60,362 nt of DNA from Rubrivivax sp. (GTDB lineage: Bacteria; Pseudomonadota; Gammaproteobacteria; Burkholderiales; Burkholderiaceae_C). The notes below the pieces were generated by a model, which saw only the letters and a list, made by a program, of their open reading frames with translations, made no database searches and was not told the origin of the DNA. How positions within the stretch are numbered: the stretch's first letter is position 1; every line of letters starts with the position of its first letter. The DNA is taken from assembly GCA_016789955.1 (NCBI GenBank), contig JAEUPB010000102.1, forward strand, positions 1-60,362, given 5' to 3'. This document shows, piece after piece, positions 1,591 to 52,987 of this stretch. The translations under genes were made by a program, and so were the position numbers.

Positions 1591-1617
1591 TTCGGCTGTT
1601 TTTTTCAGGGTTAACCC

Positions 1618-1992: not shown

Positions 1993-2054
1993 TCGGCCCA
2001 TAACTGAATTCATCTTTTCCGAACTGAATCGAACTCGAAAGGAGGATCGCAGCC

Positions 2055-2622: not shown

Positions 2623-2623
2623 C

Positions 2624-2639
2624 GCCGCCTGAGCGGCGC
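2624..2639 (-). terminator. Small GC hairpin after rsmA
   Basis: cgccgc-ctga-gcggcg forms a 6-bp stem with a 4-base loop 25 bp beyond the rsmA stop. It has no T-run, so it is at best a weak or Rho-assisted terminator. Confidence 0.3.
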
Positions 2640-2663
2640 GTCTTCGGAGGGCGGTGTGCCGGC

Positions 2664-3443: not shown

Positions 3444-3460
3444 GAGCCGGGGAACCACCG

Positions 3461-7124: not shown

Positions 7125-7250
7125 GGAACGGGGGTGAACGCAGGGACGGTGGCGGGGCGGCGTCGGCAAGGCGCGGCGATTATCAGGGCCGCCGGGGCAC
7201 GCCCCGCCCGGTCATCGCAGGGCGGCGACCTCTCGATGCGCCGTGGCGGA

Positions 7251-8711: not shown

Positions 8712-8755
8712 GTCGACTCCAAGGGTGTGCGTCCAGTGTATCGACCCGACACCCG

Positions 8756-37536: not shown

Positions 37537-37962
37537 CTATGCGCCCGGTGGGGCCGGCGGCAGCGGCCGGAACACCAGCACCGGCCCGGCCGGCGTGCCG
37601 GCCACCTGCGCCTGGACGCGCAGGCCGATGCGGACCGCCTCGGCTTCGAGGCCGTCGACGCGGCTCATCAGCCGCGGGCCCTCATCGAGGTCGACGAGCA
37701 CGACGTTGTACGGACCGCCCTGCTCCGCCCCGCGCGCAACCACCGTGACGGCGTGTACCGTGCCGAGGCCGCCCGGCTCGAACCACGCCAGCCGCAGCTC
37801 GCCGCAGCGCGGGCACAGCCGCCTCGGCGGGAAGATCGCGTGCGCGCAGGCCGTGCATCGCTGGATCGCGAAGCGGCCGTCCCGGAGCTGCGCCTGCCAC
37901 GTCGCCATCGGCCCGGAGGCGGTCTCCGCGGGCGGGGCAGTCTGCCGGGATGCGTCGGCCAT
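37537..37962 (-). CDS. DUF35 zinc-ribbon/OB-fold protein
   Basis: 141 residues, ATG with GGAAG eight bases upstream. A rubredoxin-like zinc ribbon (C36, C39, C50, C53 in RCTACAHAIFPPRRLCPRC) followed by an OB-fold (GTVHAVTVVARG, YNVVLVDLDEGPRLMSRV). DUF35 proteins pair with thiolase-fold enzymes, either HMG-CoA-synthase-like or the retro-aldolases of steroid side-chain degradation, and bind their acyl-CoA. The probable partner is the thiolase-like protein at 41353. Divergent from the acyl-CoA dehydrogenase, with the GTATAC element between them. Confidence 0.88.
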   Translation of the reverse strand: MADASRQTAPPAETASGPMATWQAQLRDGRFAIQRCTACAHAIFPPRRLCPRCGELRLAWFEPGGLGTVHAVTVVARGAEQGGPYNVVLVDLDEGPRLMSRVDGLEAEAVRIGLRVQAQVAGTPAGPVLVFRPLPPAPPGA

Positions 37963-37993
37963 GGGGGCACTTCCGTCTGAGGATTGGACTGCA

Positions 37994-38009
37994 GTATACA
38001 ATTGCATGC
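37994..38009. promoter_or_regulatory. GTATAC-type operator, site A
   Basis: GTATAC-AATT-GCATGC, a near-perfect inverted repeat in the 91-bp gap between the divergent DUF35 and acyl-CoA dehydrogenase genes. It matches 14 of 16 bases of the reverse complement of site B and overlaps a possible -10 hexamer TACAAT (37997-38002). Probable target of the GntR regulator at 43342. Confidence 0.6.
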
Positions 38010-38053
38010 AAAGATCGGTGCGGCGCCGATCCACCCCTTCAGGACCCCGCGGC

Positions 38054-39211
38054 ATGGCCCTCTTCACCGACTTCGGCTACACCGACGAACAGAAGATGAT
38101 GCGCGAGTCGCTGCTGCGGCTGGCGGCCGACACGCTGCCGCCGGCGCGCATCCGCGAGCTCGACCGCGAAGGCGCTTGGCCGCACGAGGCCTACCAGGCG
38201 CTGGCCAAGGCCGGCTGGCTGGGGCTGCTCTACCCGGAGCGCTACGGCGGGCTGGACGGCAGCTACAAGGACCTCGTGGTGCTGCTGGAGACGCTGTCGT
38301 ACCACTACGCCTGCCTGGGCACCACCTACATGACGAGCCCGATCTACGCCGGGCTGCAGGTGCTGCACAACGGCTCCGAGGAGTTGCGGCGCGACTACCT
38401 GGTGCCGATGCTGCGCGGCGAGCTGTACTTCGCGTTCGCCCTGACCGAGCCGCAGACCGGCTCCGACGCGGCGTCCATCAAGACCCATGCGCGGCGCGAC
38501 GGCGGCGACTACGTCCTCAACGGCCAGAAGTGGTTCATCACGTCGGCCCACGTCGCCGACTGGCTGGTGGTGGTGGTGAAGACCGATCCGTCGGCCGACC
38601 CGCCGCACCGCGGCTTCAGCCTGCTGTTCGTCGACGCACGCGCCAAGGGCGTGACGATCCGGCCGATCGAGACGCTGGGCCGGCACACCACGCACACCAA
38701 CCAGATCTTCTTCGACGACGTGCGCGTGCCGGCGCGCTGCCTGCTCGGCGAGGAGAACCGCGCCTGGAAGCAGCTGATGCGCGGCTTGAACCTCGAGCGC
38801 GTGGCGATCGCGGCCTGCGGCGCCGGCAACGCGCAGAAGGCGGTGGAGATCGCCTCCGACTACGCCCGCCAGCGCGTGCAGTTCGGCCAGCCGATCAGCC
38901 GGCTGCAGGTGATCGCGCACAAGCTCGCCGACATGCGCATCAAGGCCGAGGTGGCGCGCCTGGTGACCTACCGCACCGCCGAGATGATGGACGCGGGCGT
39001 GGATGCCCGCATGGAGACCGCGATCGCCAAGGTCGTCGCCACCGAGAACGACTTCCAGTGCGCCGACATCGGCATGCAGGTGATGGGTGGCGCCGGCTAC
39101 TCGATGGAGCACGACATGCAGCGCCTGTTCCGCGACTCGCGGCTGGGGCCGATCGGCGGCGGCAGCAACGAGATCCAGCGCAACATCATCGCCAAGCTGA
39201 TGGACCTCTGA
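38054..39211 (+). CDS. Acyl-CoA dehydrogenase, isovaleryl/long-chain-type active site
   Basis: 385 residues, full-length FAD-dependent acyl-CoA dehydrogenase: FAFALTEPQTGSDAASIKT (FAD contact), NGQKWFITSA, RVQFGQPISRLQ and QVMGGAGYSMEHDMQRLFRD. The usual C-terminal catalytic Glu (as in MCAD, IYEG) is Gly here (G369 in IGGGSNEIQ). A Glu in LNLERVAIA (E248) sits where isovaleryl- and long-chain dehydrogenases keep theirs. It should remove alpha,beta hydrogens from an acyl-CoA, passing electrons to ETF. A MaoC hydratase follows by 12 bp, giving a dehydrogenate-then-hydrate pair. Confidence 0.94.
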   Translation: MALFTDFGYTDEQKMMRESLLRLAADTLPPARIRELDREGAWPHEAYQALAKAGWLGLLYPERYGGLDGSYKDLVVLLETLSYHYACLGTTYMTSPIYAGLQVLHNGSEELRRDYLVPMLRGELYFAFALTEPQTGSDAASIKTHARRDGGDYVLNGQKWFITSAHVADWLVVVVKTDPSADPPHRGFSLLFVDARAKGVTIRPIETLGRHTTHTNQIFFDDVRVPARCLLGEENRAWKQLMRGLNLERVAIAACGAGNAQKAVEIASDYARQRVQFGQPISRLQVIAHKLADMRIKAEVARLVTYRTAEMMDAGVDARMETAIAKVVATENDFQCADIGMQVMGGAGYSMEHDMQRLFRDSRLGPIGGGSNEIQRNIIAKLMDL

Positions 39212-39223
39212 AGGAAGCCGACG

Positions 39224-39691
39224 ATGGCCGACACCCCCGCCCCGCGAGGCCGCTGGTTCGAGGACTTCACGGTCGGCGAGGTGCTGCTGACCGGCCGGCG
39301 CACGATCACGTCGACCGACATCGTCAACTTCGCCTGCCTGTCGGGCGACTTCAACGACGTGCACTGCAACCACGAGTACGCACGCAGCACGCCGTTCGGC
39401 GAGCCGATCGCGCACGGGCCGCTGGTCTACGCGGTGGGCGCCGGGCTGGTCTACGCCTCGGGCGTCAACGACGGCACGCTGCTGGCGCTGCAGGGCGTGG
39501 ATGGCTGGCGCATGCTCAAGCCGGTGAAGCACGGCGACACGATCCACGTGCGCTCCACCGTCGAGGAGACGCGCGCGTCGACCCGGCCCGACCGCGGCGT
39601 GGTGGTGCTGCGCCGCGAGTTCGTGAACCAGCGCGACGAGGTCGTGCAGGAGCTGCGCGCGACCATCGTCTACCGCCGCCGCCCGGCCTGA
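39224..39691 (+). CDS. MaoC-like enoyl-CoA hydratase
   Basis: 155 residues, single hot-dog fold. The (R)-hydratase motif is present as SGDFNDVHCNHEYA with HGPLVYAVGAGL (catalytic Asp/His pair). The substrate tunnel wall is GWRMLKPVKHGDTIHVRSTV. It adds water to a 2-enoyl-CoA, the step after the dehydrogenase encoded 12 bp upstream. Convergent with the AMP ligase (30-bp gap). Confidence 0.9.
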   Translation: MADTPAPRGRWFEDFTVGEVLLTGRRTITSTDIVNFACLSGDFNDVHCNHEYARSTPFGEPIAHGPLVYAVGAGLVYASGVNDGTLLALQGVDGWRMLKPVKHGDTIHVRSTVEETRASTRPDRGVVVLRREFVNQRDEVVQELRATIVYRRRPA

Positions 39692-39721
39692 CCGGCTGCG
39701 CCGCTGCGGTCGCGGCCGACG

Positions 39722-41284
39722 CTACGACGCTGCCGCCTCCCGCTCGGCGACCCAGCGCTCCAGGTCGCCGCGCACGATCTTGCCGGTGCCGTTGCGCGGC
39801 AGTGCCGCCGCGTCGATGACGTGCACCCGCTTGGGCCGCTTGAACGGCGCCAGCACGCCGTCGCAGCAGCGCAGCAGCGACACCGGGTCGACGGCCGCCC
39901 CGGCCGCGAGCGCCACCACCAGCACCGGCACCTCGCCCCAGCGCGCGTCGGGCCGGCGCACGACCACGGCCTCGATCACGCCCGGCTGGCGCGCGACGAG
40001 GCGCTCGATCTCGGCCGGGTAGATGTTCTCGCCGCCCGACTTGATCAGGTACTTGCGCCGGTCCACGTACTCCAGCCGCCCGTCGGCGCGGCGCACGAAC
40101 ACGTCGCCGGTGTGGTACCAGCCGCCGCGGAAGACCTCGGCGGTGGCCTCGGGTGCGTTCCAGTAGCCGCTGAACAGCGTCGGGCCGCGCACCAGCAGCT
40201 CGCCGGGCGTGCCGTCGGGCACGTCGCGGTCATCGGCGTCGACCAGGCGCAGCTCGCACAGCGCGCTCGGCAGCTTGGCGAGATCGGTCGGCATCTCGCC
40301 GGCCGCCAACCGGCCGGCCGACGCCGGCGGCATGCCGGTCTCGGTGCTGCCGAAGGTGTTCGTGTAGGGAACGCCCAGCAGCGCGGTCAGCTCGGCCAGC
40401 TGCGCCGGCGCGAACAGGTCGGCCAGCGCGCCGAACTTCTTCAGCCGCTTCACCCGCGGCCGCCGCTGCCGCAGGTAGGCCAGCACCTCGTCGACCATGC
40501 CCGGAAACACGATCAGGTTGGCCATGCTCTCGCGCTCGAGGTGGTCGCACAGCAGCGGCAGGTCGGGGCCGTCGACGATGACGACCTTGCCGCCCAGCAG
40601 CAGCAGGCCCACCGCGAGCTCGATCGATGCCATGTGGCACAGCGGCGACCACGCGACGAAGCAGTCGCCGCCGTCGACGCCGTAGTCGAGCACGTAGACC
40701 ATCAGCCGCGCCGCGAGCGCGCGCTCGCTGATCACGGCGCCCTTGGGCAGGCCGGTGGTGCCGCTGGTGTAGAGGATGAAGAGCGGCCGCTCGGGGTCCG
40801 CGGGCGGCGGGGGTTCGGCGCGGCGCGGGGTGTCGTCGAGCACCCGTTCCAGCGCGTCGTCGATGCACAGCAGGGCCGCATCGGGCACCGCCGCCGGGAG
40901 CGAGGCCCGGTGGCGCGCGGAGACCATCGTGAGCACCGGCTGCACCAGCTCGAGGGCGTGCGCCAGTTCCGCGGCGGCCAGCCGCGGGTTCAGCGTCGCG
41001 ACGACCGCGCCGAGCCGCATCGCCGCCAGCGCCAGCCACACGAAGGCCGGGTGGTTCTCGCTCAACACCGCGATGCGATCGCCTTCGCGCACGCCGCGGC
41101 CCTGCAGCAGCGCGGCGAGCCGGGCGGCGCGGTCGTCCAGCTCGGCGTAGCTCCAGCGGCGGCCGGCCCACGCCAGCGCGGTGCGGGTGCCGTCCACGCG
41201 CACCCAGCGGTCGAACCACGCATGCAGCGGCAGCTGCGCGGCGGCCCGCACGGCCACGGGCTGCGGAAGCGGGCCTGGACTCAT
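39722..41284 (-). CDS. AMP-forming acyl-CoA ligase 1
   Basis: 520 residues, ANL superfamily. The P-loop is LFILYTSGTTGLPKGAV, then FGSTETGMPP, the hinge region WYHTGDVFVRRADGRLEYVDR, GGENIYPAEIE, and the catalytic lysine in LPRNGTGKIVRGDLE. It uses ATP to activate a carboxylate via an acyl-adenylate to acyl-CoA. I start at the ATG at 41284; a start further upstream would fall inside the operator. Divergent from the thiolase-like gene, sharing a 68-bp promoter region with GTATAC site B. The substrate is not readable. Confidence 0.92.
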   Translation of the reverse strand: MSPGPLPQPVAVRAAAQLPLHAWFDRWVRVDGTRTALAWAGRRWSYAELDDRAARLAALLQGRGVREGDRIAVLSENHPAFVWLALAAMRLGAVVATLNPRLAAAELAHALELVQPVLTMVSARHRASLPAAVPDAALLCIDDALERVLDDTPRRAEPPPPADPERPLFILYTSGTTGLPKGAVISERALAARLMVYVLDYGVDGGDCFVAWSPLCHMASIELAVGLLLLGGKVVIVDGPDLPLLCDHLERESMANLIVFPGMVDEVLAYLRQRRPRVKRLKKFGALADLFAPAQLAELTALLGVPYTNTFGSTETGMPPASAGRLAAGEMPTDLAKLPSALCELRLVDADDRDVPDGTPGELLVRGPTLFSGYWNAPEATAEVFRGGWYHTGDVFVRRADGRLEYVDRRKYLIKSGGENIYPAEIERLVARQPGVIEAVVVRRPDARWGEVPVLVVALAAGAAVDPVSLLRCCDGVLAPFKRPKRVHVIDAAALPRNGTGKIVRGDLERWVAEREAAAS

Positions 41285-41307
41285 CGGGGCAGGGATCTCG
41301 GTGTGTC

Positions 41308-41323
41308 GCATACAACTGTATAC
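41308..41323. promoter_or_regulatory. GTATAC-type operator, site B
   Basis: GCATAC-AACT-GTATAC, centred in the 68-bp divergent gap between AMP ligase 1 and the thiolase-like gene. It overlaps a near-consensus -10 hexamer TATACT (41319-41324) for the rightward genes, a position suited to repression. Confidence 0.6.
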
Positions 41324-41352
41324 TGAAATCCAGAACTCCTGCCCGAGCATCG

Positions 41353-42507
41353 ATGCATGCACTGAGAGGTTCGTCGGCCCTGGTCGGCGTCGCCACCGCG
41401 CACATCCAGGGCGCGCCGGGCCTCGATCCGCTCGAGATGGTGGCCGATGTCGCCGCCGCCGCGGCTGCCGACGCCGGCGTGCAGCTGCACGACGTGGACG
41501 GGCTGTTCACCGGGCTGCAGTCGGAGTTCCTGAGCACGCTGGCGATCGGCGAGTACCTCGGGCTGCGGCCGCGCTTCTCGGACAACAACCGCGTCGGCGG
41601 ATCGTCGTTCCTGTGCCACACGCTGCAGGCCGCGCTGGCGCTGCAGGCGGGGCTCTGCGACGTGGCGCTGATCTGCTACGCCAGCAACCAGCGCAGCGCG
41701 CTCGGCCGGCTGCAGACGTCGGTGGCGGCCAGCTGGTCGGTGACCGAGGCGCCGTATGCCGCTCGCTTCCCGGTGTCGTCGTACGCGCTGTGCGCCAGCC
41801 GCCACATGCACGCGTACGGCACCACGCCCGAGCAGCTCGCCGCGGTGGCCGTGTCGGCGCGGCGCTGGGCGCAGCTCAACCCCGAGGCGTACGCGCGCGG
41901 CCCGCTGACGATCGGCGACGTGCTGGCCGCGCCGCGGGTGTCGACGCCGCTCGGCCGGCTGGACTGCTGCCTCGTCACCGACGGTGCCGGCGCCATCGTG
42001 ATGACGCGCGCCGACCGCGCCCGCGACCTGCGACAGCCGCCGGTGTACCTGCTCGGCGCCGCCGGCGCGCACTGGCACAAGCAGGTCTCGGCGATGCCCG
42101 ACCTCTGCACGACGGCCGCCACCGACTCGGGCCCGCGCGCCTGCGCGATGGCCGGCATCCGCCCGCAGGACGTCGACGTGGTGCAGCTCTACGACGCCTT
42201 CACGATCAGCACGATCCTGCTGCTGGAGGACCTGGGCTTCTGCGACAAGGGCCAGGGCGGCCCGTTCGTGGAGAGCGGCGCCATCGCGCCGGGTGGCGCG
42301 CTGCCGGTCAACACCAACGGCGGCGGGCTCTCGTACGCGCATCCGGGCATGTACGGCATCTACACGCTGATCGAGGGCGTGCGCCAGCTGCGCGGCCAGG
42401 CGGGCGAGCGCCAGGTCGCCGGCGCCGAGCTGTGCCTGTGCCAGGGCAGCGGCGGCGTCTTCTCGAGCCAGGTCACCAACATCCTGGGCACTGCCGCCAC
42501 GCTGTGA
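41353..42507 (+). CDS. Thiolase-fold protein lacking the nucleophilic Cys (aldolase-like), copy 1
   Basis: 384 residues with an SCP2/acetyl-CoA acetyltransferase-type fold. The usual nucleophile region reads NNRVGGSSFLCHTLQAA, with Ser/Gly where thiolases carry Cys. The active-site His motif reads VVQLYDAFTISTI (Y280 in place of His). NTNGGGLSYAHPG (H330) and CLCQGSGG remain. Replacement by Tyr here is the mark of Ltp2-type retro-aldolases of sterol side-chain degradation, which need a DUF35 partner. So carbon-carbon cleavage or aldol chemistry is more likely than thiolysis. Probable partner: DUF35 at 37537. First gene of a unit with the isomerase and GntR genes. Confidence 0.85.
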   Translation: MHALRGSSALVGVATAHIQGAPGLDPLEMVADVAAAAAADAGVQLHDVDGLFTGLQSEFLSTLAIGEYLGLRPRFSDNNRVGGSSFLCHTLQAALALQAGLCDVALICYASNQRSALGRLQTSVAASWSVTEAPYAARFPVSSYALCASRHMHAYGTTPEQLAAVAVSARRWAQLNPEAYARGPLTIGDVLAAPRVSTPLGRLDCCLVTDGAGAIVMTRADRARDLRQPPVYLLGAAGAHWHKQVSAMPDLCTTAATDSGPRACAMAGIRPQDVDVVQLYDAFTISTILLLEDLGFCDKGQGGPFVESGAIAPGGALPVNTNGGGLSYAHPGMYGIYTLIEGVRQLRGQAGERQVAGAELCLCQGSGGVFSSQVTNILGTAATL

Positions 42508-42527
42508 CCACCCCCGCGAGACCGACC

Positions 42528-43334
42528 ATGGACACGCCCCCTCCGCCCGCCGCCGAGATCGTCGATGGCCTGCTCGAACAGCGCCACGGTGACGCCGTGG
42601 TGCTGACCCTGCACGCGCCCGAGCGCCGCAACGCGCTGTCGCCAGAGCTGCGGCTGCGGCTGCGCGCAAGGCTGCAGGGGGCGCTGGAGGCCGACGACGT
42701 GCGCGCCGTCGTGCTGACCGGCGCACAGGGCACCTTCAGCGCCGGCGGCGACGTGCGGCAGATGGCCGAGCGGCCGTCGCCCGCCCTGGCGCGCCAGCGG
42801 CTGCAGGTGCTGCACGACATCGTGCGCGCGATCGTCGGCGGCCCCAAGCCGGTCATCGCGGCCGTCGAGGGCCAGGCCTACGGCGCGGGCTTCTCGCTGG
42901 CCGCGGCCTGCGACCACGTGATCGCCGGCGACGGCGCCAGCTTCTGCGCGGTGTTCGGCCGCATCGGCCTGGTGGCCGACTGCGGGCTGCTGTGGACGCT
43001 GCCCCAGCGCGCCGGCTGGGGCGCCACGCGCGACCTGCTGCTGACCGCCCGCGTGGTGCACACGGCGGAGGCCGCGAGCCTGGGCCTCGTCGACCGCGTG
43101 GTGCCCGCCGGTGGCGCGCTGCAGGCGGCGCTGGACCACGCGGCGGCCTACGCCGCGATCGGGCCGCTGGCGCTGGCGGCCACCAAGTCGGCGCTGGCCC
43201 GGCGGCCGGCGTCCCTGGACGATGCACTCGCCATCGAGGCCGACCTGCAGGCCGCGCTGCGCGTCAGCGAGGACCATCGCGAGGCCTGCGACGCCTTCCT
43301 GTCCAAGCGGCGGGCGACAATGGTGGGGAGGTGA
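42528..43334 (+). CDS. Enoyl-CoA hydratase/isomerase family, PaaG-like
   Basis: 268 residues, crotonase fold. Oxyanion-hole segments are TFSAGGDVRQMA and GQAYGAGFSLAAACD. Both classical hydratase Glu positions are replaced (Ser in GAGFSLA; Phe in the CAVFGRIGL helix). An Asp sits in GLVADCGLLWTLP (D151), as in the PaaG isomerase and Delta3-Delta2 enoyl-CoA isomerases. So double-bond isomerisation is more likely than hydration, consistent with a MaoC hydratase in the same block. ATG at 42528, 20 bp after the thiolase-like gene. Confidence 0.88.
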   Translation: MDTPPPPAAEIVDGLLEQRHGDAVVLTLHAPERRNALSPELRLRLRARLQGALEADDVRAVVLTGAQGTFSAGGDVRQMAERPSPALARQRLQVLHDIVRAIVGGPKPVIAAVEGQAYGAGFSLAAACDHVIAGDGASFCAVFGRIGLVADCGLLWTLPQRAGWGATRDLLLTARVVHTAEAASLGLVDRVVPAGGALQAALDHAAAYAAIGPLALAATKSALARRPASLDDALAIEADLQAALRVSEDHREACDAFLSKRRATMVGR

Positions 43335-43341
43335 CCGCACG

Positions 43342-44082
43342 ATGACCAAGACCGCCACCGCGCGGCGTACCCCGAAGGCTGCCGCGGCCGGCACGCGCCG
43401 CGCGGCCACCGAGACGCCCGAAGGCGACGAGCCCGACGCGAACCGGCTGCCGCGCGCCGAGCAGGCCTACCAGCACATCCGCCAGGCGATCCAGGAGCAC
43501 CGGCTCAAGCCCGGCGACCGGTTGCGCGAGGCCGAGCTGGCCGAGGCGGTGGGCGTCAGCCGCACGCCGCTGCGCGAGGCGCTGGCGCGGCTGGAGTCCG
43601 ACGGGCTGATCGCCAACGACCCGGCGCGCGGGCTGGTCGTCACGCGGCTCGACTACAACATGGTCAGCGAGCTGTACTACATGCGCGAGGTGCTCGAGGG
43701 CACTGCGGCACGGCTGGCGGCGCAGCATGCGTCCGACGTCGAGCTCACGATCCTCGAGCAGATCTGCGAACAGTACAGCCGCAGCATCGGCGACGGCGCC
43801 GCGCTCGAGATGCGCAACCGCCAGTTCCACGAGGCGCTGTACCGCTGCGCGCACAACCGCTACCTGCTGCGCACGCTGCAGGGCCTGCACGACGCGCTGG
43901 CGCTGCTGGGCGAATCGACGCTGCACGACCGCACCCGCGCCGAGAGCACGCAAGCCGAGCACGAGGCCATCACCCGCGCGATCAAGGAGCGCAACCCGGA
44001 GGCGGCCGAGCAGGCCACCCGCACGCACATCCGCAACGCGCAGTTCGAACGCGTGAAGCGCGAGTTCACGCGCATGCGCTGA
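43342..44082 (+). CDS. GntR-family (FadR/FCD) transcriptional regulator
   Basis: 246 residues. After a basic Ala/Thr-rich tail (1-35) comes a winged helix-turn-helix (EQAYQHIRQAIQEHRLKPGDRLREAELAEAV in part, VSRTPLREALARLESDGLI). A C-terminal FCD ligand domain about 110-240 carries metal-ligand-like residues (ALEMRNRQFHEALYRCAHN, EHEAITRAIKERN, ATRTHI). FCD regulators usually release DNA on binding an acid or acyl-CoA. It lies in an operon with catabolic genes, 7 bp after the isomerase. The GTATAC-N4-GYATRC elements in four nearby promoters are its likely operators; that link is inference. Confidence 0.92.
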   Translation: MTKTATARRTPKAAAAGTRRAATETPEGDEPDANRLPRAEQAYQHIRQAIQEHRLKPGDRLREAELAEAVGVSRTPLREALARLESDGLIANDPARGLVVTRLDYNMVSELYYMREVLEGTAARLAAQHASDVELTILEQICEQYSRSIGDGAALEMRNRQFHEALYRCAHNRYLLRTLQGLHDALALLGESTLHDRTRAESTQAEHEAITRAIKERNPEAAEQATRTHIRNAQFERVKREFTRMR

Positions 44083-44100
44083 GCCGCCGAGGCGCGCGGT

Positions 44101-46191
44101 TCAGCCGGCGGCCACCAGCGCGTCCAGTGCCACCACGCCGTGGCCGGCGCGGCGCACGAGCAGCGGGTTGATCTCGATGCTGCAGCCCGCCGCGGCCTGC
44201 GTCACCGCGTAGCGCGACAGCTGCGCCACCGCGGCCGCCAGCGCCGCCACGTCGGCCGCAGGCTGGTTGCGCCAGCCGCGCAGCAGCCGCACGAGGCGGG
44301 TCTCGCCGATCATCGCCAGCGCGCCGGCCTCGTCCACCGGCGCCAGGCGCAGCGCGCGGTCGCCGAGCAGCTCGGCCATCACGCCGCCGGCACCGAACAC
44401 CACCACCGGGCCGAAGGTGGGGTCGTGGCGCACCCCGAGCAGGCACTCGATGCCATCGCCGGCCATCGGCGCGACGAGGAAGCCCTCGATGCGGGCGTCG
44501 GGCCGCGCCGCGGCGACCCGCTCGCGGATCGCCGCCACCGCCGCTCGCACCGCGTCGTCGTCGAACACGTCCAGCACCACGCCGCCGACCTCGGTCTTGT
44601 GCGGCAGGTCGGCCGAGAGCACCTTCACCGCCACCGGGTAGCCGCAGCGCCGCGCCGCCTGCACGGCCGCGTCGGCATCGGCGCAGACGGTGTCGGCCAG
44701 CACCGGGATGCCGAGTTCGCCGACCAATCGCCGGGCGTCGGCCTCGTTCCGGCAGCCGCGAGGGTCCAGGGCGGCCCAGGCCGGATCGGGCGGCTGCAGC
44801 GGCGGCCGCTCGGCCGGCGTCGATGCGGCCACGCGCACCAGCGCCCCGTGCGCGCGCAGCATCCGGCAGGTGTCCTCGAACACCGCGTAGCCGGCTGCTT
44901 CGTAGCGGCGTACGTGCCCGGGCGTGGTGACGATCGACAGCAGCAGCGCCTTCGCAGGGTGCCGCGCCGCCGCGTCCACCAGCGCGTCGGCCCAGGCGTC
45001 GGCCAGCGTCGGCGCGCCGCCGGCCATGCCGACGAACAGCGCCGCCGCGTCGTAGGCATCGCCGTCGAGCAGCAGGTCCAGCACCTCGCCGAAGCGCGGC
45101 AGCTCGTTGAGGATCTGTCCCGTCAGGTCCACCGGGTTGGCGGGCATCGCGTTCGGCACCAGCGCCCGGATGCGCTCCTGCAGGGCCGGCGCCACCGGCG
45201 GCAGCACGAGGCCGTTCTGCACCGCGTGGTCGGTCATCTGCACGGCGAAGCCGCCCGAGGGGCTCAGCAGCACCAGCCGCGGGCCGGCGGGGCGGCGGCC
45301 GCGCACCGCGACGCAGGCCACATCGAGCATCTCCTCGACGCTGTCGGCGCGGTGGATGCCCAGGCTGCGGAACACCTCGTCGTAGACACGGTCCTCGCCG
45401 GCCAGCGTGGCGGTGTGCGTGGCCGCCGCGCGGCCGCCGGCCTCGGTGCGGCCGGCCTTCACGGCGATCACCACCTTGCCGCGGCAGCGTGCTTCGCGCA
45501 GGGCCGCGAGCAGCGCAGGCCCGTCGCGCACGCCCTCGAAGTACGCCAGCAGCACGTCGATGCCGCCGTCGTGCGCCATCGCGTGCAGCAACTCGGCCGC
45601 GCCGACGTCGCACTCGTTGCCGCAGCTCACCCACTGCACCAGCGGCACGCCGCGGTCGGCAGCGAGCTTGTAGACCTGGCTGCCGTAGCCGCCGCTCTGG
45701 GTGACCATGCCGATGCGGCCGACCTCGGGGTAGCCGTCGTCGAACATGCTGGAGAAGGTCATGAACGAGCGGCTGCGCGCATCGAACGCACCCAGCGAGT
45801 TCGGGCCCAGCAGCAGCATGCCGGTGCCGCGCGCCGCGTCGACCAGCCGAGCCTGCAGTTCGCGCCCGGCCGCCCCCGCCTCCGCGAAGCCCGCGGCGTA
45901 GACGATTGCCGCGCGCACGCCCGCCCGGGCGCAGTCGTGCACCGCCTGAACGGCGGCGGCGGCCGGCACGGCCACGATCGCGGCATCCACCGGCCCGGGC
46001 ACGTCGGCGATGCCGGCGTACGCGCGCAGGCCCTGCACCTCGGTGCGGTTGGGGTTCACGGGGTAGACCGGCCCGTCGAAGCCGCCTTCGATCAGGTAGC
46101 GCAGCGTGCGGCCGTTGCCGCGCCGCGGGTCGCTGGACGCGCCGATCATCGCGATCGATCGCGGGCGCAGCAGAGGGCTCAGGTCGCGCAT
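44101..46191 (-). CDS. ADP-forming acyl-CoA synthetase (fused alpha/beta)
   Basis: 696 residues from the ATG at 46191; a longer frame would begin inside the operator array. Order: CoA-binding Rossmann domain 1-130 (RPRSIAMIGASSDPRRGNG), succinyl-CoA-ligase-like domains about 140-430 with the phospho-His segment GGRAAATHTATLAGED, and an ATP-grasp domain about 470-690 (YPVAVKVLSADLPHKTEVGG, GVRHDPTFGPVVVFGAGG). It converts a carboxylate, CoA and ATP to acyl-CoA, ADP and phosphate, reversibly. It is the third CoA-activating enzyme of this block. Convergent with the GntR gene and divergent from the Bug protein. Confidence 0.9.
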   Translation of the reverse strand: MRDLSPLLRPRSIAMIGASSDPRRGNGRTLRYLIEGGFDGPVYPVNPNRTEVQGLRAYAGIADVPGPVDAAIVAVPAAAAVQAVHDCARAGVRAAIVYAAGFAEAGAAGRELQARLVDAARGTGMLLLGPNSLGAFDARSRSFMTFSSMFDDGYPEVGRIGMVTQSGGYGSQVYKLAADRGVPLVQWVSCGNECDVGAAELLHAMAHDGGIDVLLAYFEGVRDGPALLAALREARCRGKVVIAVKAGRTEAGGRAAATHTATLAGEDRVYDEVFRSLGIHRADSVEEMLDVACVAVRGRRPAGPRLVLLSPSGGFAVQMTDHAVQNGLVLPPVAPALQERIRALVPNAMPANPVDLTGQILNELPRFGEVLDLLLDGDAYDAAALFVGMAGGAPTLADAWADALVDAAARHPAKALLLSIVTTPGHVRRYEAAGYAVFEDTCRMLRAHGALVRVAASTPAERPPLQPPDPAWAALDPRGCRNEADARRLVGELGIPVLADTVCADADAAVQAARRCGYPVAVKVLSADLPHKTEVGGVVLDVFDDDAVRAAVAAIRERVAAARPDARIEGFLVAPMAGDGIECLLGVRHDPTFGPVVVFGAGGVMAELLGDRALRLAPVDEAGALAMIGETRLVRLLRGWRNQPAADVAALAAAVAQLSRYAVTQAAAGCSIEINPLLVRRAGHGVVALDALVAAG

Positions 46192-46239
46192 CGCGAGGGG
46201 GCTTGCGGCATGCGCGCCGGCAGTGGCCCGGTGCTTAGG

Positions 46240-46275
46240 GTTGACTTGAGTATACAAAGCTCGACAAAAGAATAC
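46240..46275. promoter_or_regulatory. GTATAC-type operator array, site C
   Basis: Half-sites spaced 10 bp apart: GTTGAC (46240), GTATAC (46250), CTCGAC (46260), GAATAC (46270), each separated by four bases. Only the second is perfect; the third is poor. It lies between the divergent ADP-forming synthetase and Bug protein genes. TTGACT at 46241 could also serve as a -35 element. Confidence 0.5.
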
Positions 46276-46319
46276 AGTGAGGACCAGCGCACCCGGAACC
46301 GGGTGGGAAGGTGACGTTC

Positions 46320-47309
46320 ATGAGCCGTTTCTCCGCTGTCCTCCGGCCCCTGCTCGTTCTGTCCGCCCTGGCCTGCGCCGCCGCGCACGCGCAGGCGCCG
46401 GCCTGGCCCTCCAAGCCCGTGCGGCTGCTCGTCGCCTTCGCTGCCGGCGGGCCCATCGACCTCGCCGCGCGCGTCGTGGCCGACGGCATGACGCAGAAGC
46501 TCGGCCAGCCGGTGGTCGTCGAGAACCGCACCGGCGCCAACGGCGCGATCGCCGCCGAGGCGGTGAAGGCCGCGCCGCCCGATGGGCACACGGTGCTGGT
46601 CAGCAACGCCAGCATGATCACGATCACCCCGACGCTGGTGAAGGACCTGAAGTACGAGCCGCTGCGCGACTTCGAGCCGGTCACGCGCATCGTGCAGTCG
46701 TCGCTGGTGCTGGTGGTCAACCCCGAGGCGCCCGACATGCGCGACGTGCGCACGCTGGCCGACCTGATCGCGGTGGCCAAGCGCAAGCCGGGCGAGCTGA
46801 GCTACGGCTCGGCGGGGCTGAACGGCAACGTGCAGCAGCTCGCCTTCGAGCTGTTCGCCGACCAGGCGGGCATCAAGCTGGTGGCGGTGCCGTACAAGGG
46901 CGCCTCCGAGGCGCAGCTGGCGCTGCTCGGGCAGCAGGTCACGCTGTCGTTCGACACGATGACCGCCGTGCCGCACATCAAGGCCGGCAAACTGCGACCG
47001 CTGGCGGTGTCGTCGCGCGAGCGGCTGCCCGAGCTGCCGGACGTGCCGACGATGCAGGAGCTCGGCTACCGCAACTTCGAGATCGGCTTCTGGTCGGGCG
47101 TGTTCGTGCCCAAGGGCACCCCGGCACCGGTGGTGCAGGCGCTGGCCAAGGCCATCGGCGACGCTGCCGCCGACCCGGCGGCGCGCCCCAAGCTCGACGT
47201 CCTCGGGCGCGTCGTCACCAGCAGCCCCGACGACTTCCGGCGCCACATCCAGGCCGAGACGCAGACGCTCGCCGACGTGATCAAGCGCGCCAACCTCGCG
47301 GCGCGCTGA
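46320..47309 (+). CDS. Bug/TctC-family periplasmic tricarboxylate-type binding protein
   Basis: 329 residues from the ATG at 46320, with AAGG at ideal distance (an in-frame GTG at 46311 overlaps it). Signal peptide 1-25 (LSALACAAAHAQA). Bug signatures: WPSKPVRLLVAFAAGGPIDL, GQPVVVENRTGANGAIAAE, VPYKGASEAQLALLGQQV, FDTMTAVPHIKAGKLRPLAV. Bug proteins bind small carboxylates or amides. There is no tctA/tctB permease here, the common orphan state in Burkholderiales. Its placement suggests it binds the substrate of this catabolic block or senses it. Confidence 0.93.
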   Translation: MSRFSAVLRPLLVLSALACAAAHAQAPAWPSKPVRLLVAFAAGGPIDLAARVVADGMTQKLGQPVVVENRTGANGAIAAEAVKAAPPDGHTVLVSNASMITITPTLVKDLKYEPLRDFEPVTRIVQSSLVLVVNPEAPDMRDVRTLADLIAVAKRKPGELSYGSAGLNGNVQQLAFELFADQAGIKLVAVPYKGASEAQLALLGQQVTLSFDTMTAVPHIKAGKLRPLAVSSRERLPELPDVPTMQELGYRNFEIGFWSGVFVPKGTPAPVVQALAKAIGDAAADPAARPKLDVLGRVVTSSPDDFRRHIQAETQTLADVIKRANLAAR

Positions 47310-47434
47310 CCGGCGCCGCCGCCCCCCGGACCCGAACCCTCGCCGGCACGTGCGGCGCGCCGCCGTGCGCCCGCTCGCGCCACCGCGCGCGGCGCGGCGA
47401 TGCCCCCACGCGCCGGCCGGCCGCGCAATCCCGA

Positions 47435-47464
47435 TTGACAGCCTGCGGGGACGGCTCCTATTCT
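47435..47464 (+). promoter_or_regulatory. Sigma-70 promoter of the acyl-CoA carboxylase operon
   Basis: Perfect -35 TTGACA (47435-47440), 18-bp spacer and TATTCT (47459-47464). The expected transcription start falls inside the operator array at 47466-47491, the classic layout for repression. Confidence 0.55.
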
Positions 47465-47465
47465 A

Positions 47466-47491
47466 GTATGCGCTGGTATACACACGCATAC
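47466..47491. promoter_or_regulatory. GTATAC-type operator array, site D
   Basis: GTATGC-GCTG-GTATAC-ACAC-GCATAC: three half-sites at exact 10-bp spacing, giving two overlapping 16-bp operators. It starts two bases after the -10 element of the carboxylase promoter. This is the best-formed member of the set. Confidence 0.65.
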
Positions 47492-47546
47492 TTTTGAAGT
47501 CCGATCATCCCGTCCGATGCCCGCCATCGCCCCGGCCGAGGCCTGC

Positions 47547-50500
47547 ATGACGCCACGCGTGCTGGTGGCCAACCGCGGCGAGATCGCCATCCGCGTGCTG
47601 CGCGCCGCGGCCGGTCTCGGCTGGCACGGCGTGGCGGCGAGCCCGTCCGACGACCGCCGCTCGCTGCACGTGCGCAAGGCCGACGAGGCGGTGTCGTTGC
47701 CGGGAAGCGGCGTGCGCGCCTACCTCGATGTCGACGCGGTCGTGCGCGCCGCACGCGACGCCGGATGCGGCTACGTGCACCCGGGCTACGGCTTCCTGAG
47801 CGAGCGGGCCGACTTCGCGCGCGCCTGTGCCGGTGCCGGCCTGGCATTCGTCGGGCCCGACGCGGCGACGCTCGAGCTGCTGGGCGACAAGGCCCGCGCG
47901 CGCGCACTGGCCGCGCGCTGCGACGTGCCGGTGCTGCGCGGCACGCCGGCGCTGGCCGGCGAGGACGAGGCGCAGGCCTTCCTCGCGTCGCTCGGCGGCG
48001 CGCCGATGGTGCTGAAGGCCGTGGGTGGGGGCGGCGGCCGCGGCATCCGCGTCGTGCAGCGGCCCGACGAGGTGGCCGAGGCGCTCGCGCGCTGCCGCTC
48101 CGAGGCCCTCAGCGCATTCGGCAACGCCGGCGTCTACGCCGAGGAGTTCCTCGCCGAGGCGCGCCACGTCGAGGTGCAGGTGGTGGGCGACGGCAGCGGC
48201 ACGGTGGTCGCGCTGGGCGAGCGCGAGTGCACGCTGCAGCGCCGCCACCAGAAGCTGGTGGAGGTGGCGCCCAGCCCGTCGCTCGCCGACGAGACGCGCG
48301 AGCGGCTGCTGGCGGCCGCCACGCGGCTGGCGCGCGAGCTGCGCTACCGCAGCCTGGGCACCTTCGAGTTCCTCGTCGCCCCCGGCCCGGCCGGCCCGCG
48401 GCTGGTCTTCATCGAGGCCAACCCGCGGCTGCAGGTGGAGCACACGGTCACCGAGGAGGTCCACGGCGTCGACCTCGTGCAGCTGCAGCTGCGGCTGGCC
48501 GCCGGCGAGGCGCTCGGCGACGTGCTCGGCGACGTGCCGCCGCGCGCCCGCGGCAGCGCGATGCAGCTGCGCGTGACGATGGAGCAGTCGCGGCCCGACG
48601 GCACGCAGGTGCCGGGCGTGGGCACGCTCACCGCGTACGAACTGCCGTCGGGGCCGGGCGTGCGCGTCGACGGCTGCGGCTACGTCGGCTACGCCAACGA
48701 CCCCGGCTACGACCCGCTGCTGGCCAAGGTGATCGTGCACGTGCCCGATGGCCGCTGGGACACGCTGCTGCGCAAGGCCTACCGCGCGCTGTGCGAGACG
48801 CGCATCGACGGCATCCCGACGAACCTCGCGGTGCTGCGCAACCTGCTGCTGCACCCGGCCGTGCAGCGCAACGAGCTGCACACCCGCTTCTTCGAGGAGC
48901 AGCAGCAGGCCCTGCTGGCCCCGGCGGCTGAGCATCCGGCGCTGACGCCCGAGGCCGCCCTGCCGGCGGCCGGGGCCGCGGCCACGCCCGCCGCCGGCGC
49001 GCCCGACGGGGCCGTCGCCGTGCCCGCGCCGGCGGCCGGCCGCATCGTCGAGCTCGGCGTCGCGGTGGGCGACGTGGTGCGCGCCGGCGAGCAGCTCGGC
49101 GTGCTGGAGTCGATGAAGACCGAGTTCCGCATCGATGCCGAGCGCGCCGGCACCGTGGTGGCGATCGCCGCCGCACCGGGAACGGCGGTGGCGCAGGACG
49201 CCCCCATCCTGTGGCTGACGCCCGACGGCGACGACGACGGCAGCGCCGCGCGGGCGGAGCTGCAGGTCGACCTCGACCGCATCCGCCCCGACCTGCAGGC
49301 GGTGTTCGACGCGCACGCCCGGCGCCGGGACGCCGCGCGCCCCGAGGCCGTGCAGCGCCGCCGCAAGCACGGCATGCGCACCGCGCGCGAGAACGTCGCC
49401 GACCTCTGCGACGACGGCACGTTCACCGAGTACGGCGGGCTCATCCTGGCGGCGCAGCGCATGCGCCGCACGCTGGAGGAACTCGAGCAGATCAGCCCGG
49501 CCGACGGCCTCGTGGCCGGCATCGGCTCGGTCAACGGCGACCTCTTCGACGCCACCCGCACGCGCTGCGTCGTGATGGCCTACGACTACACGGTGCTCGC
49601 CGGCAGCCAGGGCTACATGGCGCACGAGAAGAAGCGCCGCATGCTGCGGCTGGCGCTGAAGTGGCGGCTGCCGGTGGTGCTGTTCGCCGAGGGCGGCGGC
49701 GGCCGCCCGGGCGACACCGACCACCTCGGCGGGCTGCGCCTGTTCAACCCGACCTTCTGGGGCTACGCGCGGCTGCACGGGCGCGTGCCGTCGGTGGGCA
49801 TCGCGGCCGGCCGCTGCTTCGCCGGCAACGCCGCGCTGCTGGGCGTGTGCGACCTGATCGTCGCCACCGAGGATGCGTCGATCGGCATGGGCGGCCCCGC
49901 GATGATCGAAGGCGGCGGCCTGGGCGTGGTGGCGGCCGAGGACGTGGGCCCGGTGGCGATGCAGTCGCGCAACGGCGTCATCGACGTCGTCGTGCGCGAC
50001 GAGGCCGCGGCGGTGGCGGTGGCCAAGCGCTACCTGTCGTACTTCCAGGGCCGGCTGCGCGACTGGCGCTGCGCCGACCAGCGGCTGCTGCGGCACGTCG
50101 TGCCCGAGGACCCGCGCCGCGCCTACGACATGCGCCGCGTGATCGAGCTGCTCGCCGACGAGGGCAGCCTGCTCGAGCTGCAGCGGGGCCACGGCACCGG
50201 CGTCATCACCGCGCTCGTGCGCATCGAGGGCCATGCGTTCGCGATCCTCGCCAACAACCCGGTGCACCTGAGCGGCGCCATCGACGCCGCGGCCTCCGAG
50301 AAGGCCGCGCGCTTCATCGCGCAGGCGCAGTCGGGCGGGTTGCCGGTGGTGGCGCTGTGCGACACGCCGGGCTTCATGGTCGGCCCCGATGCCGAGGCCG
50401 AGGGCCTGGTGCGCCGCGCCGGCCAGATGTTCATCGCCGGCGCCAACGTCACGGTGCCGTACTTCACGGTGGTCGTGCGCAAGGCCTACGGGCTGGGCGC

Positions 50501-50825
50501 GGTGGCGATGGTCGGCGGCAACGCGCACGAGCAGGTGTTCGCCGTGTCGTGGCCCACCGGGCACTTCGGCAAGATGGGCCTGGAAGGCTACGTGAAGCTC
50601 GCCTACCGCAAGGAACTCGAGCAGATCGACGACCCGCAGGCGCGCCGCCGCCGCGTCGACGAGATGGTCGCCGCGATGCACGCCAAGGGCACGGCGCTGA
50701 AGACCGCGCCGTTCCTGTCGATCGACGACGTGATCGACCCGATGGACACCCGCCGCTGGCTGGTCGACGGCCTGGTCACCGCTCGCCAGCAGCGCGGCGG
50801 GCCCGACGAACAGACGATGTACTGA
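47547..50825 (+). CDS. Single-chain biotin-dependent acyl-CoA carboxylase (BC-BCCP-CT)
   Basis: 1092 residues; ATG at 47547 with GAGG five bases upstream. Biotin carboxylase 1-445 (RVLVANRGEIAIRVLRAA, KAVGGGGGRGIRVV, FIEANPRLQVEHTVTEE). A Pro/Ala linker, then the biotinyl domain with VLESMKTEF (K524), then a carboxyltransferase about 590-1090 (GSQGYMAHEKKRRM, ANNPVHLSGAIDA, CDTPGFMVGPDAE). Having all three parts on one chain matches the long-chain acyl-CoA carboxylase type described from mycobacteria and Rhodopseudomonas, rather than housekeeping AccABCD. It adds CO2 to the alpha or gamma carbon of an acyl-CoA. First gene of the operon that continues through dppD. Confidence 0.93.
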   Translation: MTPRVLVANRGEIAIRVLRAAAGLGWHGVAASPSDDRRSLHVRKADEAVSLPGSGVRAYLDVDAVVRAARDAGCGYVHPGYGFLSERADFARACAGAGLAFVGPDAATLELLGDKARARALAARCDVPVLRGTPALAGEDEAQAFLASLGGAPMVLKAVGGGGGRGIRVVQRPDEVAEALARCRSEALSAFGNAGVYAEEFLAEARHVEVQVVGDGSGTVVALGERECTLQRRHQKLVEVAPSPSLADETRERLLAAATRLARELRYRSLGTFEFLVAPGPAGPRLVFIEANPRLQVEHTVTEEVHGVDLVQLQLRLAAGEALGDVLGDVPPRARGSAMQLRVTMEQSRPDGTQVPGVGTLTAYELPSGPGVRVDGCGYVGYANDPGYDPLLAKVIVHVPDGRWDTLLRKAYRALCETRIDGIPTNLAVLRNLLLHPAVQRNELHTRFFEEQQQALLAPAAEHPALTPEAALPAAGAAATPAAGAPDGAVAVPAPAAGRIVELGVAVGDVVRAGEQLGVLESMKTEFRIDAERAGTVVAIAAAPGTAVAQDAPILWLTPDGDDDGSAARAELQVDLDRIRPDLQAVFDAHARRRDAARPEAVQRRRKHGMRTARENVADLCDDGTFTEYGGLILAAQRMRRTLEELEQISPADGLVAGIGSVNGDLFDATRTRCVVMAYDYTVLAGSQGYMAHEKKRRMLRLALKWRLPVVLFAEGGGGRPGDTDHLGGLRLFNPTFWGYARLHGRVPSVGIAAGRCFAGNAALLGVCDLIVATEDASIGMGGPAMIEGGGLGVVAAEDVGPVAMQSRNGVIDVVVRDEAAAVAVAKRYLSYFQGRLRDWRCADQRLLRHVVPEDPRRAYDMRRVIELLADEGSLLELQRGHGTGVITALVRIEGHAFAILANNPVHLSGAIDAAASEKAARFIAQAQSGGLPVVALCDTPGFMVGPDAEAEGLVRRAGQMFIAGANVTVPYFTVVVRKAYGLGAVAMVGGNAHEQVFAVSWPTGHFGKMGLEGYVKLAYRKELEQIDDPQARRRRVDEMVAAMHAKGTALKTAPFLSIDDVIDPMDTRRWLVDGLVTARQQRGGPDEQTMY

Positions 50826-50873: not shown

Positions 50874-51794
<921 letters not shown>

Positions 51795-51816
51795 CCGGCA
51801 GGCGACGGAGCCGTCG

Positions 51817-52980
51817 ATGAGCGCGCCCGCGGCCTGCATCGCAGGCATCCACGAGCTGCCCACGCGCAAGGCACCCGACCACACGGTGCCGCAGCTGCAC
51901 GCGATGGCCGCGCGCGGCGCGCTGCTCGACGCGGGGCTGGGCTTCCAGGACGTGGACGGCTACTTCTGCGCCGGCGACGCGCCCGGCGGCCTGCAGATGG
52001 CCGAGTACCTGGGCCTGCGGCTTCGCCACTTCGACGCCACCGAGGCCGGCGGCGCGAGCTACGTGCTGGACGTCGGGCATGCCGCGCAGGCCATCGCCGC
52101 GGGGAAGTGCACGGTGGCGCTGATCACGCTCGCGGGCCGGCCGCGCTCGGAGGGCGTGGCCACCGGCACCACGCCGCGCATCTACAACCTCGCCTCGCCG
52201 GACGTGCAGTTCGAGGCGCCGTTTGGCGCGACGGTGGTCAACCTGTACGCGATGTCGGCGGCGCGGCACAGGCACCTCTACGGCACCACGCCCGAGCAGC
52301 TGGCGTGGATCAAGGTGGCGGCGTCGCACCACGCGCAGCACAACCCGCACGCGATGCTGCGCGAGGTGGTGACGGTGCAGGACGTGGTCGACTCGCCGCT
52401 GATCGCCGACCCGCTGCACCGGCTGGACTGCTGCGTGATCAGCGACGGCGGCGGCGCGCTGGTCGTCGTGCACCCGTCGATCGCGCGCGGCCTGCGCCAG
52501 CCGGTGGTGCGCGTGCGCGGCGCCGGCGAGGCCGTGAAGCACAGCCGCGGCGGCGAGGTCGACCTGTGCACCACCGCCGCGGCGGCGTCGGGCCGGGCCG
52601 CGTTCGAGCAGGCCGGCGTGACGCCCGCGGACATCCGCTACGCGTCGCTGTACGACAGCTTCACGATCACCACGCTGCTGCAGATCGAGGACCTGGGCTT
52701 CTGCGCCAAGGGCGACGGCGGCCGCTACGTCGCCGACGGCAACCTGATCGCCGGCAGCGGCCGCCTGCCGTTCAACACCGACGGCGGCGGCCTGTGCAGC
52801 AACCACCCGGCCAACCGCGGCGGCATGACCAAGGTCATCGAGGCCGTGCGCCAGCTGCGCGGGCAGGCGCACCCGGCGGTGCAGGTGCGCGACTGCGCGC
52901 TGGCGCTGTGCAATGCCATCGGCGGCTCGGCGATCGGCAACCGCCACGCCAGCGCCACGCTGATCCTCGAGCGGGAGTGA
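51817..52980 (+). CDS. Thiolase-fold protein lacking the nucleophilic Cys (aldolase-like), copy 2
   Basis: 387 residues. Same class as the protein at 41353 and alignable end to end, but clearly diverged. The nucleophile region is TEAGGASYVLDVGHAAQA (no Cys). The His motif is ASLYDSFTITTLLQIEDLGF (Y279). NTDGGGLCSNHPANRG and CNAIGGSAIG remain. A DUF35 gene follows 7 bp later, the same order as Ltp2-DUF35 pairs of steroid side-chain degradation, so a retro-aldol role is favoured over thiolysis. The Met start is 22 bp after the SDR stop. Confidence 0.87.
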   Translation: MSAPAACIAGIHELPTRKAPDHTVPQLHAMAARGALLDAGLGFQDVDGYFCAGDAPGGLQMAEYLGLRLRHFDATEAGGASYVLDVGHAAQAIAAGKCTVALITLAGRPRSEGVATGTTPRIYNLASPDVQFEAPFGATVVNLYAMSAARHRHLYGTTPEQLAWIKVAASHHAQHNPHAMLREVVTVQDVVDSPLIADPLHRLDCCVISDGGGALVVVHPSIARGLRQPVVRVRGAGEAVKHSRGGEVDLCTTAAAASGRAAFEQAGVTPADIRYASLYDSFTITTLLQIEDLGFCAKGDGGRYVADGNLIAGSGRLPFNTDGGGLCSNHPANRGGMTKVIEAVRQLRGQAHPAVQVRDCALALCNAIGGSAIGNRHASATLILERE

Positions 52981-52987
52981 CGACGCC

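What the first reader, a model, noticed from the sequence alone, without database searches (positions are those of the whole stretch)
37994..47491. A shared GTATAC-N4-GYATRC operator links four promoters of the catabolic block into one regulon
Sites A (37994), B (41308), C (46240) and D (47466) all sit in promoter gaps of the catabolic genes. A is GTATAC-AATT-GCATGC; the reverse complement of B is GTATAC-AGTT-GTATGC, 14 of 16 identical. D and C repeat half-sites every 10 bp, one helical turn. B overlaps a -10 hexamer and D follows a TTGACA promoter, as expected for repression. I noticed no other GTATAC when reading the window, and in DNA this GC-rich it should be rare. A FadR-type GntR gene (43342) sits in the middle; this family often binds sites with GT...AC cores. 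The regulator-site link is inference.
Basis: partly seen in the sequence, partly recalled or inferred. Interest (0 to 1): 0.85.

Follow-up and report, generated by a model that had tools for sequence, protein, structure and literature searches.

The report
One repressor's repeated operator sites
A small set of nearly identical DNA sites, rare in this bacterium's genome and clustered at the promoters of one catabolic gene block, is very probably the docking site of the GntR-type repressor encoded in that block, because the same kind of site sits beside the same regulator in other bacteria.

Summary
GTATAC occurs four times in the window (0.62 expected), each time in a promoter gap. The exact 16-mer has five places in the 5.26-Mb draft assembly: A, B, two overlapping at D, and one outside the window, C2:5265. 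Site C is weak.

A motif learned from promoters of the GntR gene's orthologs, window excluded, is TATACAATTGTATACA. Its eight best matches among 120,694 strand positions of the window are A, B and D. With each clade left out in turn, the ortholog promoter site ranks first in 16 of 18 loci. The C2 site lies 11 bp before a TcuA-type dehydrogenase gene; a homologue of that gene is divergent from gntR in 13 of 25 ortholog loci. None of 16 paralogous GntR loci has a comparable site.

Best reading: a VanR-group FCD repressor, one dimer per GTATAC-like box as for Atu1419 on ATGTATACAT, boxes repeated at 10-bp pitch. gntR, third gene downstream of B, is probably autoregulated. A new member of a known kind. 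Binding, effector and repression are untested.

The parts
37994..38009 (+). Operator A, GTATAC-AATT-GCATGC, between the DUF35 gene (-) and the acyl-CoA dehydrogenase gene (+)
   Evidence: Exact 16-mer; best window hit of the ortholog-derived motif, 20.2 bits, above the largest value (15.4) of 200 Markov simulations
41308..41323 (-). Operator B, GTATAC-AGTT-GTATGC on the - strand, between the AMP-ligase gene (-) and thiolase-ECH-gntR (+)
   Evidence: Exact 16-mer; 13.4 bits, above the 95th percentile (12.3) of the simulations but not above their largest value (15.4)
47466..47491 (+). Operator D, three hexamers GTATGC-N4-GTATAC-N4-GCATAC, directly after a TTGACA-18-TATTCT promoter
   Evidence: Two overlapping exact 16-mers; 10.1 bits, not significant alone against the simulations
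46240..46275 (+). Site C, weak: GTTGAC, GTATAC and GAATAC in 10-bp register, between the ATP-grasp CoA ligase gene (-) and the TctC receptor gene (+)
   Evidence: GTATAC exact; 3.2 bits only, rank 11; hexamers
47435..47464 (+). Promoter-like site, ends 1 bp before operator D
43342..44082 (+). gntR, FCD/VanR-type regulator, 246 aa, the proposed repressor
   Evidence: Pfam FCD 7.4e-27 and GntR 1e-19; model and fold matches
37537..37962 (-). DUF35/ChsH2-type OB-fold protein (target side of A)
38054..39211 (+). Acyl-CoA dehydrogenase (target side of A)
39224..39691 (+). MaoC-like dehydratase
39722..41284 (-). AMP-binding CoA ligase (target side of B)
41353..42507 (+). Thiolase-like protein (target side of B)
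   Evidence: NCBIfam PRK06158 588.5 bits, cut-off 421
42528..43334 (+). Enoyl-CoA hydratase/isomerase, 7 bp before gntR
44101..46191 (-). ATP-grasp, NDP-forming type CoA ligase (side of C)
46320..47309 (+). TctC-type receptor (side of C)
47517..50825 (+). Fused biotin carboxylase-biotin carrier-carboxyl transferase (target of D)
50874..53401 (+). Short-chain dehydrogenase, thiolase-like protein and second DUF35, probably one operon with the carboxylase
   Evidence: operon inferred from spacing

Best explanation
Sites A, B and D, and one site on another contig of the assembly (C2:5265-5280), are operators of the FCD/VanR-type GntR protein encoded at 43342. Each GTATAC-like hexamer (GNATNC) is the core of a short palindromic box for one dimer. 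Boxes are repeated two or three times at a pitch of 10 bp, one helical turn, so that neighbouring dimers would lie on the same face of the DNA. Without inducer the protein would sit at or next to the -10/start region and block the catabolic operons, its own (thiolase-ECH-gntR, downstream of B) included, and in trans a tcuA-like dehydrogenase gene. An effector, most likely a carboxylic acid or a product of the pathway bound near a metal in the FCD domain, would release it. Shown by computation: the sites, their rarity and clustering, their conservation with the regulator, the identity of the DNA-contact residues with those of Atu1419. Inferred: binding, repression, cooperativity, autoregulation, effector.
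For: De novo motif from 20 ortholog promoters without window sequence, 19 of 20 with a site of 14 bits or more; it ranks A, B, D top in the window. Leave-clade-out: first in 16 of 18 loci. Held-out orthologs G578 and G266: best site of the locus just upstream of gntR. 13 of 25 ortholog loci have a TcuA homologue divergent from gntR with a site of 13 bits or more between them; the only strong match of such a TcuA in the own genome is the gene behind the C2 site (TcuA model NF006130 582.6 bits, cut-off 369). All exact 16-mers in 20 genomes searched (9 places in 5 genomes) lie in a gntR-ortholog locus or at C2. Paralog control: 16 loci, best 7.5 bits. Hexamer pairs at 10 bp: 43 against about 5. 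Six DNA-contact residues of Atu1419 identical. Promoter directly before D.
Against: No binding or expression data. D alone (10.1 bits) is below the 95th percentile of simulated windows (12.3) and B (13.4) below their maximum (15.4). The exact 16-mer is absent from 13 of 18 genomes that carry an ortholog; they have degenerate forms. Ortholog L052 has no site in the region tested (0.6 bits) and L051 ranks 11th; in L042 the site is not directly upstream of gntR. C2 and C32 are contigs of one draft assembly, 79.6% complete, so binning and missing sites are open.
Confidence: 0.85

Rival explanations
1. The sites belong to another FCD/GntR paralog of the genome, and the resident gntR is only a neighbour.
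For: 16 other loci with a GntR match exist in the assembly; a GTATAC core is not unique to one FCD regulator (Atu1419).
Against: None of the 16 paralog loci (2.5-3.7 kb each) has a site above 7.5 bits; the orthologs of the resident gene do, in unrelated neighbourhoods; two same-genus genomes without an ortholog at 1e-45 have no 16-mer.
Confidence: 0.05
2. Same regulator and sites, but the protein works as an activator or a dual regulator rather than a repressor.
For: Function was not tested; site A and site C do not follow a consensus-grade promoter.
Against: D lies 1 bp after a -10-like hexamer, where bound protein would block; Atu1419 and NanR, the nearest characterised relatives read about here, are repressors.
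Confidence: 0.08
3. GTATAC is a shared promoter element (TATACT as -10) and no operator.
For: GTATACT, which holds TATACT, occurs at B on the + strand and at A and C on the - strand (read).
Against: A promoter element does not explain 10-bp arrays, rarity in the genome, or conservation next to one regulator.
Confidence: 0.02
4. Chance in AT-richer intergenic DNA.
For: Gaps A, B, C have 56-62% G+C against 72% for the window, which raises the chance of GTATAC.
Confidence: 0.01

Closest known systems
Atu1419 of Agrobacterium fabrum (VanR group of FCD regulators; PMC7797058, abstract and passages; PDB 6Z74, 6ZA0, 6ZA3, 6ZA7, 6ZAB)
   Same: Best fold matches of the model; same GTATAC core (ATGTATACAT); all six contact residues checked are identical (R31, E34, S44, R45, T46, R49 line up with R60, E63, S73, R74, T75, R78) and so are the metal ligands N137, H141, H192, H214 (N159, H163, H207, H229); represses its own and catabolic genes; a box overlaps the -10.
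   Different: About 30% identity; its boxes stand far apart (190 bp) and a tetramer loops between them, whereas here boxes follow each other at 10 bp; other pathway.
NanR of Escherichia coli (PMC8012715, abstract and passages)
   Same: FCD-type regulator with repeated short boxes in one operator, three dimers on three repeats, cooperative.
   Different: GGTATA repeats less than half a turn apart and asymmetric; cooperativity needs a 32-residue N-terminal extension. Here the pitch is a full turn, and orthologs with arrays have tails of differing, often short, length.
PmiR of Pseudomonas aeruginosa (PDB 7XP0, 7XP1)
   Same: Best PDB match by sequence (3.3e-21); related fold.
   Different: Its operator and its 2-methylisocitrate effector are recalled; no paper on it was read.
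MdcY and other FadR-subfamily regulators with 2-nt spacing between GT and AC (PMC4494728, passages)
   Same: That paper lists GntR, HpxS, HypR, MdcY, PrpR and UxuR with GT-N2-AC sites, the shape of one GTATAC box.
   Different: Single palindromes in that description; here arrays. That MdcY and MatR bind ...GTATAC... is recalled, not read.

Membership tests
GntR superfamily, FCD subfamily | N-terminal GntR winged helix and C-terminal FCD domain | tested here: met
   Pfam GntR 70.4 bits (cut-off 27), FCD 94.7 bits (cut-off 24.3)
VanR group of FCD | Six, not seven, helices in the FCD domain | tested here: met
   Six helices at 105-245 in the AlphaFold2 model, mean pLDDT 80.9, pTM 0.62; best fold matches are Atu1419 chains, TM-score about 0.5
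Metal-binding FCD | N/D-x3-H ... H ... H ligands | tested here: met
   N159, H163, H207 invariant and H229 nearly invariant in 19 orthologs, aligned with the Atu1419 ligands; metal binding itself not tested
GntR/FCD operator | Palindromic GT...AC box in target promoters | tested here: met
   GTATAC at A, B, C, D; ortholog motif. Neighbouring boxes vary at the second and fifth letters (GNATNC)
NanR | NCBIfam NanR model (NF003011) above its cut-off | tested here: not met
   77.1 bits against a cut-off of 260
NanR-like operator | Repeats less than half a turn apart | tested here: not met
   10-bp pitch
GntR/FCD repressor | Specific binding, repression, release by an effector | not testable with these tools
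   Needs protein and cells

The most novel reading that the evidence does not exclude
This clade of VanR-type regulators assembles as a line of two or three dimers on abutting GNATNC palindromes one helical turn apart, a cooperative operator design different from the half-turn NanR array and from the distant-box looping of Atu1419; and in this lineage it has spread from a tcuA partner to the promoters of a whole acyl-CoA/carboxylase block while keeping tcuA as a target in trans.
Probability: 0.4. Interest if true: 0.5.

Novelty: new member of a known kind. Interest (0 to 1): 0.4.

Why it matters
It offers an operator layout, dimer boxes at one-turn pitch, in which cooperative binding of FCD regulators can be tested by changing the spacing alone. 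For the pathway it gives a lead: the regulator's usual partner elsewhere is a tricarballylate-dehydrogenase-type gene, which hints at a di- or tricarboxylic acid or a derivative as substrate or inducer.

Tried and rejected
Relaxed motif: TGNATNC-N4-GNATNC has 7 places in the genome, only 2 of them in the window, so it is not used for counting; GNATNC-N4-GNATNC in the window alone gives A, B and D twice (4 against 0.48 expected). GTATACNNNNGTATAC with up to 2 mismatches gave 9 distinct places, 5 in the window (A, B, C, D1, D2) and C2, C53, C85, C95, with 10 strand matches for the control against 18; the C53, C85 and C95 sites score 3.1 bits or less with the ortholog motif and were dropped. A NanR-like role for the N-terminal tail was considered and not adopted: residues 1-32 have pLDDT under 50 and the tail varies in orthologs that have arrays. 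G181 has a perfect GTATAC-N4-GTATAC (14.6 bits) but no ortholog at 1e-45; left aside as another system.

Motif set: of 26 orthologs, 20 promoters were used; L033, L034, L041, L047, L049 were left out as near-duplicates and L042 because no site lay directly upstream of gntR. Regions were chosen by me after the first scan, for the Pigmentiphaga-type loci as the gap before the TctC-gntR operon, so the choice was not blind; the window was not in the set. In one search the sites of the remaining clades had been picked with the full motif, and 18 of the 20 loci were used (not L052, L056). In one search some query frames (w49211, c2_8185, c2_10066, c2_11184) were mechanical ORFs and are not relied on; the query labelled c2_TctC is an epimerase-family protein, and the MmgE query carried one extra codon in front. 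L053 dropped out of the tree.

Papers: GntR + FCD domain + GTATAC: 0 papers. GntR + tricarballylate: 1 paper, listing only. Searches with TGTATACA or tandem palindromes list only the top rows of larger sets; among the rows shown, Atu1419 is the one GntR paper that holds TGTATACA. I found no report of this regulator, in an open-access library and with these searches only.
Full report
Observation. GTATAC occurs four times in the 60,362-base window, each time in a promoter gap (0.62 expected). In the whole assembly (5,255,933 bases, 79.6% complete) the exact 16-mer has five places: A, B, two at D, and C2:5265-5280; the backward control has none. With one mismatch allowed there are 15 strand matches against 6 for the control, so only the exact form is used. 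In 199 other genomes of the family the 16-mer has 13 places in 11 genomes, and the control is as common there. Two genomes of the same genus have none.

Genes. A lies between a DUF35 gene and an acyl-CoA dehydrogenase-MaoC pair; B between an AMP-ligase and thiolase-ECH-gntR; C between an ATP-grasp CoA ligase and a TctC receptor; D before a fused biotin-dependent carboxylase, a short-chain dehydrogenase, a thiolase-like protein and a second DUF35. gntR follows ECH by 7 bp, so it is probably transcribed from the promoter at B and would be autoregulated (inference). The only consensus-grade promoter in 37900-47600 is TTGACA-18-TATTCT, ending 1 bp before operator D.

Orthologs. A scan of GTDB species genomes gave 25 loci with relatives of 45-57% identity; one more (61%, G055) was found in 200 family genomes (2 of 200 with the own genome, at 1e-45). 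In a tree with 16 paralogs of the own genome, the window protein pairs with the G055 protein (98/95) inside a clade of 26 rows (window, G055 and 24 of the 25 loci; 99/97) that holds no paralog; the 25th, L053, could not be placed for lack of sequence, and the paralog branches are long. The gene is rare and patchy: 3 of 369 class genomes with the own one, at 1e-60.

Motif without the window. EM motif discovery on 20 ortholog promoters gave TATACAATTGTATACA, that is GTATAC-AATT-GTATAC without its first G; 19 of the 20 carry a site of 14 bits or more, L052 does not. Scanned over the window it puts its eight best hits at A (20.2), B (13.4) and D (10.1). In 200 third-order Markov versions of the window the best hit averages 7.5, with a 95th percentile of 12.3 and a largest value of 15.4. 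So A stands out from all simulations, B from 95% of them, and D does not by itself; D is carried by its three boxes, its place after a promoter and the exact 16-mer count. C reaches 3.2. The C2 site has 12.6. Sixteen paralog loci of the own genome reach at most 7.5. With each clade left out in turn, the promoter site ranks first in 16 of 18 loci, second in L044 (first is a further site upstream of an NMT1-like receptor gene) and eleventh in L051. Arrays of 14 bits or more: 18 in 3,950 bp of these promoters and 4 in 289,025 bp elsewhere; the first number is partly by construction. Two orthologs not used for the motif, in G578 and G266, have the best site of their locus just upstream of gntR.

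Exact sites and the gene. In 20 genomes (own, G055, two of the same genus, and those of 16 ortholog loci), the exact 16-mer occurs at 9 places in 5 genomes. Five are in the own genome; the other four, by my conversion of coordinates, lie inside the gntR loci L035, L040, L042 and L048. Thirteen of the 18 genomes with an ortholog lack the exact form.

Architecture. In the ortholog promoters, hexamers with at least 4 of 6 letters of GTATAC form 43 pairs at 10 bp, 24 at 20 bp and 30 at 30-31 bp, against about 5 for each spacing in shuffled sequence. The 43 partly reflects the choice of promoters by a paired motif; the excess at 20 and 30-31 bp does not follow from a 16-bp motif and points to true arrays, as at D. 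Atu1419 binds the 10-bp palindrome ATGTATACAT, one dimer of its tetramer per palindrome, with Arg45 reading the G (PMC7797058, passages). The six contact residues that I checked are the same in the window protein; R60, S73, R74, T75 and R78 are invariant and E63 nearly so in 19 sequences. So one GTATAC box per dimer is the simplest reading, and two or three dimers per operator its consequence. NanR is the precedent for three cooperative dimers on three repeats, but with repeats less than half a turn apart (PMC8012715, passages).

The fifth place. C2:5265-5280 ends 11 bp before the start of a TcuA-family FAD dehydrogenase gene (NF006130, 582.6 bits, cut-off 369), divergent from an MmgE/PrpD gene. 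In 13 of 25 ortholog loci a homologue of this dehydrogenase is divergent from gntR, with a site of 13 bits or more between the two; a fourteenth (L040) has one 8 kb away with its own GTATAC-N4-GTATAC. The TcuA of L040 has one strong match in the own genome, C2:5304-6749, 43% identity (the next is 2.5e-4). In G055 the bases upstream of gntR read, by eye, as the start of the same kind of protein. This ties regulator and site together without the window, and extends the regulon in trans. L040 and L051 also hold homologues of the window's D-operon genes (thiolase-like 60% and 70%, DUF35 52% and 45%).

What is not shown. No binding, expression or effector. The metal-ligand residues and the TcuA, TctC and PrpD-type neighbours hint at a carboxylic acid effector; this is inference. 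Site C is undecided. C2 and C32 are contigs of one draft assembly; their G+C contents are alike (0.74 for the first 16 kb of C2, 0.72 for the window), which does not prove one organism.

Verdict. The system is a new member of a known kind, with an operator layout that merits a spacing experiment.

Noticed in passing
L028 (own genome C2:1-16000), 161-10055: Around the fifth site: CoA-transferase III gene, MmgE/PrpD gene (-), TcuA-like gene (+), epimerase-family gene and an ETF-domain gene; a second small catabolic set that may share the regulon.
   Followed up: partly
window 47517-50825: Biotin carboxylase, biotin carrier and carboxyl transferase domains fused in one 1102-residue protein; substrate unknown.
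   Followed up: no
L051:2879 and L051:20214: GTATAC-N4-ATATCC upstream of a thiolase-like gene (70% identical to the window's) and of a DUF35 gene in Paraburkholderia antibiotica: a possible diverged form of the operator.
   Followed up: partly
L042:11940 and L044:13946: Strong sites away from the gntR promoter: before an AbrB-family (PF05145) gene in Uliginosibacterium and before an NMT1-like receptor gene in Vreelandella.
   Followed up: partly
G181:C1:2317196 (L064): A perfect GTATAC-N4-GTATAC just before an ORF that looks KfrA-like by eye, in a genome without a gntR ortholog at 1e-45; probably another system.
   Followed up: no
window 43342-43440: The GntR protein has an N-terminal tail of about 37 residues, of which 1-32 have pLDDT under 50; tail length varies among orthologs.
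   Followed up: partly
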